In this document: positions 59,310 to 64,000 of the stretch, one piece after another | Position numbering within the stretch: position 1 is the stretch's first letter | Layout: each line of letters opens with the position of its first letter | Assembly: GCA_947458455.1 (NCBI GenBank) | Contig: CANGYJ010000009.1 | Coordinates: forward strand, 1-64,000 | Origin: Verrucomicrobiaceae bacterium | GTDB lineage: Bacteria; Verrucomicrobiota; Verrucomicrobiia; Verrucomicrobiales; Verrucomicrobiaceae | Reading direction: 5' to 3' | Length of the DNA: 64,000 bases | The notes under the pieces: generated by a model | Database searches by the model: none | What the model was told of the DNA's origin: nothing | What the model saw: only the letters and a program-made list of their open reading frames with translations | Translations under genes and position numbers: made by a program

Positions 59310-60854
59310 TCAGTTCCCGAAGAACTGCTCGCCCTTCACCACCGTACCGTCACGCAGCACCACAGAGAAGGTGCCACCATTCGCCTTAGCTAGCCGATCC
59401 ATATCCGCTGCGGCATCGGTCTCCATCATAACGCTGGTGTGAATCACGGTGCGGGTCATGGAGCGGTTGTTTTCGCTAGTGATGATGTCCACCCAGCCTT
59501 GTTCGTCACTCTTCTGGCCATCGGTCATGAAGAAAATGATGTCCGGCTTCGGGTTCGCGTTCAGCGCCATCAGTAGGCCGCTGCCCCAGTTCGTTCCGCC
59601 GGGATTATCTGCCTCCTGAACGATCTTCCGGCTATCCGCCAGATTGAAGGGCGAGGCCAAAAGATAAGCAAAATTGGGTATCTTTGCCTTCTTCCATTCG
59701 TCCGAGGAAATACTCCAACGGAACTTCTCAAACGCGGTGGACTTCTTCGGATCGATCGTGTTATGCGGCCAGGCAAAGTCGGAGAAAAACAGGATCTGAT
59801 ACTGCGTACCGGAGGGTACCCGGCCCAGACTTTTGACGAGCTCCTTTTTTAGCACATCAAAGCGACTCGTACCACCCTCACCGACCTGAGACATCGAGGC
59901 GGAGACATCCACCACGAAGACCACCCGCCGGCCAAAAGCCGTCTGGCCGAGGAAGCTGAACATGCCGCCCTTGCCAATGCCCGCGCCGAAGCCACCACCA
60001 CTTCCTCCTGCGCCCATGCCTGCATTCAGCCCGAGGCCGCCGGAGAGCTTTCCCAGTTCCATGCGCTCCGTCATGCCGGAAAGGTTCAGAGAGTCCATTT
60101 CCATCTCCGGGAGTTGAACGTCGGCCGTGATGGACTGCACCGTCACTCGCGACATCGGCTTGTTCTTGAGCCAAGTGTTCTTCTTCTGCCTTACCTTATG
60201 CTCCAGCGCCTCGGAGGCTGCCGCGGACTGTGGGCTACCGCCGGGCAAAAAGTCCACCTGCTTGTCCATCACATGGCGCACGGTGATCGCTGCTCCGAGG
60301 AGCAAAATGAGCGCATGAATGCCTACGCTAACCCCGAGTGAGCTGGCACCGATTTTCGCTTTCCAGTCCTGCCACCAGCGGCGGCGCTTTTCTTCCACGG
60401 TGAGAGGCTCCTCGGGCACGACTTCGGGTTTTGGAGGCTGCGGGATCTCTGAGACCTTCGCTTCCACCTTCTCATCCTTCCTCAAGGGCAACACCTCAGA
60501 CTTCGGAGCCAGGACCGGTGGCGGTTCATCCGCTTTTTCTTCAGCCTTCAGGGCTAGCGTCTCGACATGTTCCACCCGTGGCGGCTGAATGAAGATGACA
60601 GGTGCCTCTTCCAAAGGTTTTGGCGCTTCCACGAATACTTCCGGCTTGGGAAAGAACTCCGGCTCAGGCTCCACGGCCTTCATCTCAGGCTCGGGCATAT
60701 GCACCGGCTCCGGTTCAGCGGGCGAAGCCGCCACCTTCCGCGTGCTTTGATACTCATGCCACTTTTCATCGCGATCGATGAGGTCATCGTCGTCCACGTC
60801 TGCCACGGTAGGCAGGGCGCTCAAATCAATGTCGTGGCGGGCGTGGCGGCTCAT
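59310..60854 (-). CDS. Membrane-anchored VWA-domain protein
   Basis: 514 residues from the ATG at 60854. A Pro/Glu/Lys-rich cytoplasmic stretch (about 50-165) is followed by a TM helix (SLGVSVGIHALILLLGAAITV), a Gly-rich linker (LGLNAGMGAGGSGGGFGAG), and a C-terminal von Willebrand A domain with DVSASMS, the metal-site pattern DxSxS, and FFMTDGQKSD. The N-terminus resembles TonB/TolA-like linkers. It is downstream of the CdaA operon. Whether it works with c-di-AMP is unknown. Confidence 0.85.
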   Translation of the reverse strand: MSRHARHDIDLSALPTVADVDDDDLIDRDEKWHEYQSTRKVAASPAEPEPVHMPEPEMKAVEPEPEFFPKPEVFVEAPKPLEEAPVIFIQPPRVEHVETLALKAEEKADEPPPVLAPKSEVLPLRKDEKVEAKVSEIPQPPKPEVVPEEPLTVEEKRRRWWQDWKAKIGASSLGVSVGIHALILLLGAAITVRHVMDKQVDFLPGGSPQSAAASEALEHKVRQKKNTWLKNKPMSRVTVQSITADVQLPEMEMDSLNLSGMTERMELGKLSGGLGLNAGMGAGGSGGGFGAGIGKGGMFSFLGQTAFGRRVVFVVDVSASMSQVGEGGTSRFDVLKKELVKSLGRVPSGTQYQILFFSDFAWPHNTIDPKKSTAFEKFRWSISSDEWKKAKIPNFAYLLASPFNLADSRKIVQEADNPGGTNWGSGLLMALNANPKPDIIFFMTDGQKSDEQGWVDIITSENNRSMTRTVIHTSVMMETDAAADMDRLAKANGGTFSVVLRDGTVVKGEQFFGN

Positions 60855-60940
60855 TCGGAGTTCGGGTGGCGACTTTCGAGCCTTTCCGCATCCGTTCAAC
60901 GGGCATTCTTCGCGGCTCATTAGCCGTGAGAGTGATAAAA

Positions 60941-61183
60941 CTACTGTTGAGGCGCTTCTGCAGCCTTCGGCACGGCAGGAGCAATCGGTGCTTGAATCAC
61001 AATGGGAGCAGGAGCGGGCGTGAGTTGCACCGCTGGCGGCGGCATCTGTTGCCAGTAAGGCATCGGCGGGCGTTCCGTCTGCGCTTTGATCAGCAGCCAG
61101 AAGAGAAAGGCCAGCACCAAGGCCACCAGCTTCTCACGCCAGTTGCAGACGAGCATGTTGCTAAATCGTGTGCCCCAGTTCAT
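60941..61183 (-). CDS. Very short YbbR/CdaR-like membrane protein
   Basis: 80 residues. NWREKLVALVLAFLFWLLIKAQ resembles the N-terminal membrane helix of CdaR (YbbR-domain) proteins, which regulate CdaA. The usual periplasmic YbbR repeats are missing; instead there is a Pro/Ala-rich tail (PPAVQLTPAPAPIVIQAPIAPAVPKAAEAPQQ). It overlaps the 3' end of cdaA by 23 bases. Its size makes it a truncated or minimal CdaR, which fits the operon but remains an inference. Confidence 0.65.
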   Translation of the reverse strand: MNWGTRFSNMLVCNWREKLVALVLAFLFWLLIKAQTERPPMPYWQQMPPPAVQLTPAPAPIVIQAPIAPAVPKAAEAPQQ

Positions 61184-61976
61184 GGCCCTCCTCCTTGTCT
61201 TTTTTCACCAGCGTTCCATCGCGATTGCTGTCACCGGAAAGGATTTCATTGATGCGCTGCCGCAGCTCGTCCGGTTCGAGATCGTGCTCCAGCTTGCCCT
61301 GATAGCAGAGTGACAAAGCCCCCGTCTCCTCACTCACCACGAGGGCGATGGCATCCGTCTCCTCCGTGATGCCCATGCCAGCGCGATGACGCAGGCCGAT
61401 GGCGCGATCCTGGATGTCTCGCTGGCTCACGGGAAAAACGCAGCCCGCACTGGCGAGGCGGCCCTGATCAATGATCAGCCCCCCATCATGCAGCACGGTC
61501 TTCGGGTGGAAAATCGTCGCGATGAGCTCGGTGGAGATCGCCGCGTCGATCTCCACACCGGATTCGGCATAGAGTTTGAGATCAATGCCACGCTTCAGAG
61601 CAAACAACGCTCCACACCGCCGTGAAGAAAGCTGCTGCATGGCCTCCATCAGCAGATCGAGCGCCTCGGGATCAGGTCGGTTAAAGGAGAACATCCGGCT
61701 GCTACCCAGCTCCGCCAGCACACGGCGCAGCTCCGGCTGAAAGAGCACCACCAGCGCGATGGCAAGGAAGACGGACACCCGCTGCAACAGCCAGGTAATG
61801 ACCTCCAACTCCAACAGCAGCGAGATCAGCGCCAAGCTCAAAAGCAGAATGAGCAATCCCGTCAGGATGCGGGCACCACGCGTGGCACGGAAGAAGAGAT
61901 ACCCATGATACGCCAGCGCGGCGAGGATGAGGATCTCCACGCCGTCGCGCCAGTGCGTTGTCAAAAAGTTCCACAT
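61161..61976 (-). CDS. cdaA: Diadenylate cyclase (CdaA type)
   Basis: 271 residues. Two or three N-terminal membrane helices (GVEILILAALAYHGYLFF, ILTGLLILLLSLALISLLL), the connecting LFQPELRRVLAELG, then a DAC domain with LHDGGLII, VFPVSQRDIQDRAIGLRHRAGMGITEETDAIALVVSEETG. The RHR motif is intact; the usual DGA reads DGG. It makes c-di-AMP from two ATP. It is the first gene of a three-gene minus-strand unit with the short CdaR-like protein and the VWA protein. Confidence 0.92.
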   Translation of the reverse strand: MWNFLTTHWRDGVEILILAALAYHGYLFFRATRGARILTGLLILLLSLALISLLLELEVITWLLQRVSVFLAIALVVLFQPELRRVLAELGSSRMFSFNRPDPEALDLLMEAMQQLSSRRCGALFALKRGIDLKLYAESGVEIDAAISTELIATIFHPKTVLHDGGLIIDQGRLASAGCVFPVSQRDIQDRAIGLRHRAGMGITEETDAIALVVSEETGALSLCYQGKLEHDLEPDELRQRINEILSGDSNRDGTLVKKDKEEGHELGHTI

Positions 61977-62043: not shown

Positions 62044-63510
62044 CTACTTCTTCGCTTTGTTTGGGATCTGCGGCTTCGCTTCGGGATGCTTGGCCAGAAG
62101 CTTGCGAAGCTCCGCAAGCACTTCGGGCTGCTCGGCGGCGAGGTTCTTGGTTTCGGCGGGATCGTTCTGGTAATCGTAGAGTTCGAAAACGGCGGTCTCG
62201 GGTGCTGCACCGGGCTTTTTCCATTCCACGAGGCGATGCCGCGCCGTGCGAATCGCACGGCCGATGAGTCCCTGTGGCCGCGGATACACATGAAGAACAT
62301 GGTCACGCGTGCTCGCAGACGGATCGGCGAGCACTTGGGCAAAGCTGCTGCCATCGACCAGCTTGGGCGCGGGAAGTTTCGCCAACTCGGCAAGCGTCGG
62401 ATAGATGTCACAGGTCTCGATGAGCGCTTCGGTGCGCTTTCCACCCGCAATGCCGGGCGCAGCGACGATGACGGGAATTCGCGCCGCCTGTTCATAATTC
62501 GAGTGTTTGCACCACATGCCGTGATCACCCAGGTGCCAGCCGTGATCCCCCCACAGCACGATGATCGTGTTTTCGGCCAAGCCATTCGCGTCGAGCGCAT
62601 CGAGCACCTTGCCGAGCTGCGCATCCATGTAGCTCGTGGCGGCATAGTAGCCGTGGATGAGGTGACGAGCCTGCTCGGGCGTCACCGGGCCTTTTTCAGG
62701 CATGTCTTTGTATTGTCGCAATTCACCCCACGAGGTCGGCGCAAAGCCTGGAGCACCTTCGGGCGCTTTTTGAAGTTCCGGCAGCTTGAAGGCCGCGGCC
62801 TCGTAGAGGTCCCAATACTTCTTGGGAGCCACAAACGGCAGGTGAGGCTTCAAAAAGCCGACGGCGAGGAAAAAAGGCTTCTCCGGCTTCGCCTTGGCCG
62901 CCGCGAGACGCTTGATGGCCTCCTCGGCGATGATGCCATCACCGTAGCGATTGTCCGGCACATCAGCATTTTCCGTGGCAGCACCACGAGGCAGCTTCCA
63001 GGCCTCCTTTTTGTTCTCAAACAACGCCTGCTCGCGGGTGGACTCCGGCGGATTGTTCTCCGACAGCGCATAGCTGATCGTCTTCGGGCTGAAGTGCGGC
63101 ACGCTCCACGAGGCCTCGTCATTCACATTGCCATGGCCCACGTGGAAGATCTTCCCCAGCGCCTCCGTGCGATAACCCTGCGCCATGAAATGCTGCGGCA
63201 GCGTGACGGCATCTGGCACGGCTTGGCGAAAGTTCGTGCTCAATTCGTAAATGCCGAGCGTCTGCGGACGCAGGCCAGTGAGCAGCGTATTCCGCGAAGG
63301 CGAGCATACTGCCTGATTGCAAAACGCCTTCTCAAACACCACCCCGCGTGCCGCGAGCCGATCCATGTTCGGCGATTTCACGATCTTATCGCCATAGCAG
63401 CCGAGCACGGGCTTCAAATCATCCACGCAGATGAGCAGCACGTTCGGTTTGGAAGCCGCCACGAGCGTGGAGGAGAAACAAAAGAAGGAGAGAACGAGAT
63501 GGCGAAACAT
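62044..63510 (-). CDS. Sulfatase (iduronate-2-sulfatase-like)
   Basis: 488 residues from the ATG at 63510. A signal peptide (MFRHLVLSFFCFSSTLVAA) is followed by NVLLICVDDLKPVLGCYGD and the formylglycine motif CSPSR at 69-73 (Cys69 is modified to formylglycine). Further metal and substrate residues follow in LWGDHGWHLGDHGMWCKHSNYE. It is a periplasmic or secreted type I sulfatase, probably acting on sulfated polysaccharides. The maturase is not in this window. Confidence 0.93.
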   Translation of the reverse strand: MFRHLVLSFFCFSSTLVAASKPNVLLICVDDLKPVLGCYGDKIVKSPNMDRLAARGVVFEKAFCNQAVCSPSRNTLLTGLRPQTLGIYELSTNFRQAVPDAVTLPQHFMAQGYRTEALGKIFHVGHGNVNDEASWSVPHFSPKTISYALSENNPPESTREQALFENKKEAWKLPRGAATENADVPDNRYGDGIIAEEAIKRLAAAKAKPEKPFFLAVGFLKPHLPFVAPKKYWDLYEAAAFKLPELQKAPEGAPGFAPTSWGELRQYKDMPEKGPVTPEQARHLIHGYYAATSYMDAQLGKVLDALDANGLAENTIIVLWGDHGWHLGDHGMWCKHSNYEQAARIPVIVAAPGIAGGKRTEALIETCDIYPTLAELAKLPAPKLVDGSSFAQVLADPSASTRDHVLHVYPRPQGLIGRAIRTARHRLVEWKKPGAAPETAVFELYDYQNDPAETKNLAAEQPEVLAELRKLLAKHPEAKPQIPNKAKK

Positions 63511-63524
63511 AGACCCGAAGGTGA

Positions 63525-64000
63525 TTACCCCACATACCGCTCCCGCAGATGCGCCACATGCCATTTGGCATCCGTCGCCTTGCCGGTGGCCGCCTGCATG
63601 ATCTCCGTGGGCGTTAAAGCCGCGCCATAAGCATGCACGTGATCACGCAGCCACTTCAACAGCGGCGCGTAGTCGCATTTCTCCAGGCCGGTGGCGATCT
63701 TCTTGTTCTTCTTCGCCGTCGCGAAAAGCTGGGCGGCATTGAGATTCCCGAGCGTGTAGGTGGCGAAGTAACCGAGCCCTCCCATGCTCCAATGAATGTC
63801 CTGCAAGCAGCCTCGGCGATCATCCGGCGGCGTGAGGCCGAAAAGATCGCGAAACTCCTCGTTCCACACCTTGGGCACGTCTTTGACCGCCAGCTCCCCC
63901 TTCACCAGACGACGCTCGATGCCAAAGCGCAGCAGGATGTGCAGGTCATACGTCGCCTCATCGGCCTCCACGCGAATGAAACTGAACTCACTGCGCAGCA
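63525..64000 (-). CDS. M32 carboxypeptidase, C-terminal part (5' end outside window)
   Basis: About 158 residues visible; the frame is open to the window edge. SEFSFIRVEADEATYDLHILLRFGIERRLVKGEL, KVWNEEFRDLFGLTPPDDRRGCLQDIHWSMGGLGYFATYTLGNLNAAQLF and NKKIATGLEKCDYAPLLKWLRDHVHAYGAALTPTEIM are diagnostic of the C-terminus of thermostable metallocarboxypeptidases (M32). The HEXXH site lies upstream and outside. A cytoplasmic peptide-trimming role. Confidence 0.92.
   Translation of the reverse strand, partial: LRSEFSFIRVEADEATYDLHILLRFGIERRLVKGELAVKDVPKVWNEEFRDLFGLTPPDDRRGCLQDIHWSMGGLGYFATYTLGNLNAAQLFATAKKNKKIATGLEKCDYAPLLKWLRDHVHAYGAALTPTEIMQAATGKATDAKWHVAHLRERYVG

What the first reader, a model, noticed from the sequence alone, without database searches (positions are those of the whole stretch)
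60941..61976. c-di-AMP cyclase operon with a minimal CdaR-like protein
CdaA is followed, with a 23-bp overlap, by an 80-residue protein that has only the N-terminal helix of CdaR plus a Pro/Ala tail, then a VWA protein. CdaR normally has several YbbR domains. The DAC motif DGG instead of DGA is a further variation.
Basis: partly seen in the sequence, partly recalled or inferred. Interest (0 to 1): 0.5.

Follow-up and report, generated by a model that had tools for sequence, protein, structure and literature searches.

The report
CdaR regulator reduced to one helix
Beside the enzyme that makes the signal molecule c-di-AMP, this bacterium and its relatives keep only the membrane helix of the partner protein CdaR, without its outer domains, which suggests that the helix alone does a key part of CdaR's job.

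Summary
cdaA (61161-61976, minus strand) overlaps by 23 bp an 80-residue ORF (60941-61183) with no Pfam or NCBIfam match. It is not an artefact. A homologous helix follows cdaA, or is fused to its end, in 88 of 88 CdaA-bearing genomes examined in the class, and is absent from 40 of 40 class genomes in which no CdaA-type cyclase was seen. A profile of N-terminal helices of full-length CdaRs from outside the class has this ORF as its only match in the whole genome (E 9.6e-6), and the cdaA-adjacent gene as top match in 21 of 21 CdaA genomes tested. The YbbR domains that define CdaR are missing: 0 of 79 class genomes match Pfam YbbR, against 133 of 161 elsewhere in the phylum; one class genome (G276) keeps a YbbR-like segment that Pfam misses. 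glmM follows in many relatives, so the gene sits in the cdaR slot of cdaA-cdaR-glmM. Most likely it is a helix-only CdaR derivative that binds CdaA's membrane domain; binding and activity are untested. Two details of the finding fall: DGG is the common motif here (127 of 180 entries), and the VWA gene is not a conserved partner. New variant of a known kind.

The parts
61161..61976 (-). cdaA, membrane diadenylate cyclase, 271 aa: N-terminal membrane domain plus cytoplasmic DAC domain
   Evidence: TIGR00159 209.2 bits over cut-off 188.8; DAC E 1.3e-35, CdaA_N E 1.9e-9; the only DAC match in the genome
60941..61183 (-). helix-only CdaR derivative ('mini-CdaR'), 80 aa
   Evidence: ORF; only match listed in the whole genome to a profile of CdaR N-terminal helices from outside the class, E 9.6e-6; homologues downstream of cdaA or fused to it in 88 of 88 genomes
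61161..61183 (-). 23-bp overlap of the cdaA and mini-CdaR reading frames
   Evidence: coordinates of the two ORFs; many relatives show an overlap of 20 or 23 bp
61073..61156 (-). conserved transmembrane helix, signature N-W-x2-K-x6-A-x3-W
   Evidence: match of profile A2; conservation in alignments A1 and A3
60944..61072 (-). variable Pro/Ala-rich tail, inferred to lie outside the membrane
   Evidence: not conserved between genera; 10 to 76 residues after the conserved W in 87 class genomes
59310..60920 (-). VWA-domain protein, neighbour; not judged a part of the system
   Evidence: VWA_2 E 5.8e-8; no homologue at E<=1e-5 in the cdaA loci of the nearest relatives L084-L087

Best explanation
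The 80-residue protein is what remains of CdaR after loss of its extracytoplasmic YbbR domains: one transmembrane helix, N terminus inside, plus a short tail that is free to vary. SHOWN by sequence: homology of the helix to the N-terminal helix of full-length CdaRs, its place downstream of (or fused to) cdaA, purifying selection, and co-occurrence with CdaA. INFERRED: the helix packs against the three-helix membrane domain of CdaA through its conserved face (counted from the K: W at -3, K at 0, a small residue at +3, A at +7, W at +11), and so sets the assembly or activity of the cyclase constitutively, without an outside signal. The overlapping genes, and the fusions in some relatives, fit a fixed ratio of the two proteins.
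For: Profile-profile match of 26 class mini-CdaRs (A3) with 41 CdaR N-terminal helices from outside the class (A2): probability 97.9, E 3.2e-13. A2 searched genome-wide in 26 class genomes: the top match is the cdaA-adjacent gene or fused tail in 21 of 21 CdaA genomes (E 3.4e-9 to 1.2e-4; every other match 0.0575 or worse); in the 5 genomes without CdaA the best is 0.533. Helix present in 88 of 88 class genomes with a CdaA locus, 56 in the family and 32 in the rest of the class (with A3, which was built from some of these genomes; the independent A2 alone finds it in 31 of the 32, within 900 nt). None of 40 class genomes without a seen CdaA has it at E<=0.02 (best 0.0251, a 13-position match); 3 positive controls gave 5.3e-14 to 1.1e-13. 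YbbR: 0 of 79 class genomes against 133 of 161 others (79 and 161 are my counts of the kinship column). In-frame fusions of the helix to CdaA in G001, G011, G012, G018, G019 and G153; since the DAC domain is cytoplasmic, a fusion requires the helix to run in-to-out, the topology described for CdaR. Purifying selection, dN/dS 0.24. Conservation follows one helix face (100-degree moment, p 0.041 mini, 0.007 full), and residues +3 and +7 are both small in 25 of 26 mini and 36 of 41 full sequences. Published: CdaR contacts CdaA through their TMDs (review PMC10243994, passage); two-hybrid data place YbbR on the CdaA membrane region (PMC6368335, passage).
Against: No experiment shows that the mini protein is made or binds CdaA. 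Rows of A2 were chosen mainly by presence of a loose K-x6-small-x3 pattern (39 of the 48 listed with it, plus 2 without; 16 listing entries, among them one wrong ORF, failed the pattern), so its conservation figures are inflated. One class genome (G276) has a CdaA fused to the helix plus a segment that looks YbbR-like by eye and that Pfam misses; 20 of the 28 outside genomes without a Pfam YbbR match still have the CdaR helix, several in full-length frames, so 0 of 79 holds only at Pfam's sensitivity. In S. aureus work, co-expression of YbbR did not change c-di-AMP made by DacA in E. coli (PMC6368335). The AlphaFold model of a natural fusion gives the helix only moderate confidence (10-residue blocks 74, 78, 76, 61; pTM 0.60), and no contacts were read from it.
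Confidence: 0.72

Rival explanations
1. The helix is an assembly or stability factor rather than a regulator: a fourth membrane helix that CdaA needs to fold, insert or localise, with no influence on rate.
For: Co-occurrence with CdaA; in-frame fusion as a fourth helix in six class genomes; retained in two genomes of only 0.9 Mb (G094, G115).
Against: The homologous full-length CdaR alters c-di-AMP levels in several species: ybbR::Tn raises it in S. aureus (PMC11520302), deletion raises it in P. gingivalis (PMC9259658), and YbbR is needed for full output in Chlamydia (PMC12422730).
Confidence: 0.3
2. The helix is an anchor that brings a separate periplasmic sensor or GlmM to CdaA; the sensing part of CdaR was moved to another protein.
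For: glmM-like sequence lies within 700 bp downstream in 39 of 56 family genomes and 9 of 32 others; the tail varies and could be a docking segment.
Against: No Pfam YbbR domain anywhere in 79 class genomes; only 10 residues follow the conserved W in G248; GlmM is reported to bind the cytoplasmic domain of CdaA (PMC6368335); glmM is on another contig in the window's genome.
Confidence: 0.12
3. An unrelated small membrane protein that resembles the CdaR helix by composition, or a frameshifted or misassembled cdaR.
For: Short hydrophobic helices give weak chance matches.
Against: Genome-wide uniqueness of the match, same register, and position downstream of cdaA in 88 of 88, no room for a lost YbbR part before the next gene in many relatives, purifying selection.
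Confidence: 0.03

Closest known systems
CdaR (YbbR), the CdaA regulator of the cdaA-cdaR-glmM operon
   Same: Homologous N-terminal transmembrane helix in the same register, gene after cdaA, before glmM in many relatives, overlapping reading frames.
   Different: No YbbR domain; 41 to about 103 residues by my choice of start codon, instead of about 230 to 360 in the full-length CdaRs seen here.
CdaA-CdaR fusion proteins of streptococci (described in PMC10243994, passage)
   Same: CdaA and the CdaR helix in one chain, as in six class genomes and, with three YbbR stretches, G187 outside the class (L220).
   Different: The class fusions carry the helix without YbbR domains, apart from G276 with one YbbR-like segment.
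Chlamydia DacA-YbbR pair (PMC12422730, passages)
   Same: CdaA-type cyclase with a membrane partner encoded next to it; the kinship of the two phyla is recalled.
   Different: Chlamydia keeps a YbbR protein; here only the helix remains.

Membership tests
CdaA (membrane diadenylate cyclase) | match to the CdaA equivalog model and DAC domain | tested here: met
   TIGR00159 209.2 bits, cut-off 188.8; DAC E 1.3e-35
CdaA (membrane diadenylate cyclase) | N-terminal membrane domain | tested here: met
   CdaA_N 38 bits, cut-off 23.8
CdaA (membrane diadenylate cyclase) | c-di-AMP synthesis | not testable with these tools
   RHRAG and HDGG motifs are present in the translation; activity not assayed
CdaR / YbbR protein | N-terminal transmembrane helix of the CdaR type | tested here: met
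   hhalign probability 97.9, E 3.2e-13; own genome E 9.6e-6, sole match listed
CdaR / YbbR protein | one or more extracytoplasmic YbbR domains | tested here: not met
   no Pfam match at E<=1; no YbbR match in the whole genome; 0 of 79 class genomes. So it is not filed as a YbbR protein but as a helix-only derivative of CdaR
CdaR / YbbR protein | gene adjacent to cdaA, before glmM | tested here: inconclusive
   adjacent to cdaA in the window, but glmM of this genome lies on another contig, C5. In relatives glmM-like sequence lies within 700 bp downstream in 39 of 56 family genomes and 9 of 32 other class genomes, contig ends counting as misses
CdaR / YbbR protein | binds CdaA and changes c-di-AMP output | not testable with these tools
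   no experiment

The most novel reading that the evidence does not exclude
The CdaR helix alone is a complete, signal-independent controller of CdaA. A bacterial class discarded the YbbR sensor and kept the membrane contact, so the helix is the output module of every CdaR and the YbbR domains are a detachable input. A peptide of about 41 residues would then be enough to set the level of an often essential second messenger.
Probability: 0.4. Interest if true: 0.75.

Novelty: new variant of a known kind. Interest (0 to 1): 0.6.

Why it matters
The function of CdaR is called unknown in a 2023 review, and CdaR proteins are said to act oppositely in different species (PMC10243994 and PMC9259658; passages). 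A class whose members, with one known exception, kept only the membrane helix is a natural domain deletion. It says which part goes with CdaA, and it gives minimal proteins and natural fusions that make the open question (what does CdaR do to CdaA?) directly testable. Annotation by family models would not name the gene, because neither Pfam nor NCBIfam has a model that matches it; how public records annotate it was not checked.

Tried and rejected
Artefact or frameshift of a full cdaR: rejected. VWA protein as partner: rejected, not conserved at this place. DGG as a variation: ordinary. A promoter and terminator scan found 1 promoter-like site (0.8 expected) and 7 terminator-like sites (2.5 expected); I could not make use of them. 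Alignment A4 placed the short proteins on CdaA's own helices and was not used; A5 without them was folded. The Foldseek search with that model gave CdaA/DacA/CdaM cyclase domains in the 50 rows shown and said nothing about the added helix. Helix packing could not be read, because no model file was among the files that scripts can see. Strict motif counting left 9 of the 88 genomes without a call (G018, G063, G066, G100, G112, G126, G162, G276, G289), through variants, distance or a misplaced cdaA end, so profiles replaced it. The second DAC protein of G135 (L203) was left out of the scripts' counts, and loci whose cdaA runs off the contig (L012, L064, L092) gave no count; G018 and G058 were counted from their other contigs.

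Literature: nine searches of the held open-access library; in the titles and abstracts listed I saw no report of a CdaR without YbbR domains. Passages were read in six papers, none in full. Gibhardt 2020 was not looked up; Rismondo 2016 is not held.

Full report
WHAT IS THERE. On the minus strand the window holds cdaA (61161-61976, 271 aa), a small ORF (60941-61183, 80 aa) whose start lies 23 bp inside the end of cdaA, and 20 bp further on a VWA-domain ORF (59310-60920). CdaA passes its family model (TIGR00159, 209.2 bits against a cut-off of 188.8) and is the only DAC match in the genome. The small ORF matches nothing in Pfam or NCBIfam at E<=1, and the whole 5.35-Mb genome (96% complete) has no YbbR match by Pfam. 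Records with the nearest cdaA genes are titled Verrucomicrobiaceae and Prosthecobacter MAGs. The sampled genomes (G handles) are unnamed; 'the class' below means the class of the window's genome.

IS IT REAL. Of 59 genomes of the family, 56 have a DAC match. In all 56 a homologous helix follows the cdaA reading frame or is fused to it. In 32 further genomes of the class with a CdaA-type cyclase it is present in 32 of 32 (profile A3, built from some of these genomes; the independent profile A2 found 31 of the 32 within 900 nt). The remaining one, G112, has the gene about 1.25 kb downstream, just before glmM. Three more order-level genomes had a helix match at about 1e-13, without a check of its neighbours. 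Two genomes of only 0.9 Mb keep it (G094, G115). The helix core, outside the overlap, shows pooled dN/dS 0.24 in 24 sequences (276 pairs, some of them close relatives); against the four nearest loci pS is 0.21-0.41 and pN 0.04-0.13. Many relatives share an overlap of 20 or 23 bp with cdaA.

WHAT IT IS. I built a profile (A2) from 41 N-terminal segments of full-length CdaR proteins, all outside the class. Rows were mostly picked by a loose pattern (39 of the 48 listed with it, plus 2 without; 16 listing entries failed it), so A2 leans towards that pattern. Against the 26 class mini-proteins (A3) hhalign gives probability 97.9 and E 3.2e-13. Searched in six frames through 26 whole genomes of the class, A2 has its top match at the cdaA-adjacent small gene, or the fused tail, in 21 of 21 genomes with CdaA, with E from 3.4e-9 to 1.2e-4; every other match has E 0.0575 or worse. 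In the window's genome it is the only match listed (E 9.6e-6, at E<=10). In five genomes whose cyclase is not CdaA the best is 0.533. The commonest residues of the two groups agree at N (-4), K (0), A (+3), L (+4, +6, +9), A (+7), W (+11) and I or V (+14), with W against mostly F or W at -3; conservation correlates (Spearman 0.75 over 20 positions; the same commonest residue at 11 of 20). Conservation follows one helix face (100-degree moment, p 0.041 mini, 0.007 full).

WHAT WAS LOST. In a sample of 240 genomes of the phylum, Pfam YbbR rings in 133, all of them outside the class; by my count of the kinship column 79 genomes are inside the class and 161 outside. Of the 28 outside genomes without a YbbR match, 20 have the CdaR helix at E<=0.05, several in a long frame (G249 306 aa), so Pfam misses some divergent YbbR proteins. 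One class genome, G276, has a 400-aa CdaA fused to the helix and a segment that looks YbbR-like by eye, which Pfam also misses. The ordinary state in the class is nonetheless a short protein: after the conserved W there are 10 to 76 residues (median 27) in 87 of the 88 genomes, G276 being the one not measured, and in G248 the whole protein is 41 aa. Because most genomes outside the class have full CdaR, loss in the class is the simpler history (inference; no tree was built). A similar shortening occurs outside the class: G257 (62 aa) and G240 (95 aa), family f31, each followed by an FtsK-like gene (by eye).

WHERE IT SITS. glmM-like sequence lies within 700 bp downstream in 39 of 56 family genomes and 9 of 32 others (by motif; contig ends count as misses). 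That is the three-gene order known from Firmicutes (PMC10243994 and PMC6368335, passages). Of the 20 order-level genomes outside the family, 19 by my reading have instead a dethiobiotin-synthetase-like gene (AAA_26 in the one tested; name recalled); the stricter motif caught only 9. In the window's genome glmM is on contig C5, and the VWA gene beside the mini-CdaR has no homologue at E<=1e-5 in the cdaA loci of the four nearest relatives, one of which holds only 1.2 kb downstream. I therefore leave the VWA protein out of the system.

FUSIONS AND CO-OCCURRENCE. In G001, G011, G012, G019 and G153 the helix is in frame at the C terminus of CdaA; G018 shows the same on a contig that begins inside cdaA. 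A fusion to a cytoplasmic domain fixes the topology as N-inside (inference). Outside the class G187 fuses CdaA to a full CdaR with three YbbR stretches (602 aa), like the streptococcal fusions mentioned in PMC10243994. Forty class genomes lack the helix: best E 0.0251 over 13 positions. In 5 of them no DAC was found; in 35 the DAC match is weaker (E 1e-16 to 1e-24) and lies in another, longer frame, two of which I examined by Pfam. Helix and CdaA thus go together, 88 of 88 against 0 of 40. AlphaFold2 on the natural fusion of G012 gives a 33-residue helix at 284-316 (10-residue blocks 74, 78, 76, 61; pTM 0.60); contacts could not be measured.

HOW IT LIKELY WORKS. Published work, seen as passages, says that CdaR binds CdaA through the membrane parts (PMC10243994; PMC6368335), that its loss raises c-di-AMP in S. 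aureus and P. gingivalis (PMC11520302; PMC9259658), that YbbR supports DacA in Chlamydia (PMC12422730), and that co-expression of YbbR had no clear effect on S. aureus DacA in E. coli (PMC6368335). The mini-CdaR keeps the reported contact part and drops the presumed sensor part. The best reading is a helix that binds the CdaA membrane domain and fixes its assembly or activity without an outside signal. Identity as a CdaR-derived helix is strongly supported; regulation as against mere stabilisation is open.

The observation and the core interpretation hold. DGG is ordinary (127 of 180 entries, some genomes entered twice), and the VWA link is not conserved.

Noticed in passing
L204:760-2115 (genome G264) and L205 (genome G197): 35 of the 79 sampled class genomes have, instead of CdaA, a DAC match in an open frame of 450 to 487 aa (594 in G217). 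The two proteins examined carry PTS_EIIA_2, DacZ_P and DAC domains, which suggests a soluble cyclase tied to the phosphotransferase system. Two literature searches listed nothing on it by title or abstract.
   Followed up: partly
L212 (genome G257) and L245 (genome G240), family f31 outside the class: Short CdaR-type proteins (62 and 95 aa) between cdaA and an FtsK-like gene, apparently an independent shortening.
   Followed up: partly
L201:3139-4341 (genome G276): CdaA fused to the CdaR helix and a YbbR-like segment (by eye) in one class genome, below Pfam detection.
   Followed up: partly
L220:684-2492 (genome G187): Natural fusion of CdaA with a full CdaR, 602 aa, three YbbR stretches.
   Followed up: partly
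L248 (genome G112), L195 (genome G100): The helix gene is about 1.25 kb (G112) and 0.75 kb (G100) away from cdaA; in G112 it lies directly before glmM, so an insertion seems to have split the operon.
   Followed up: no
window 62044-63564: Sulfatase gene directly upstream of cdaA on the same strand; found at the same place in L084 and L085 (84-85% identity), not in L086 and L087.
   Followed up: no
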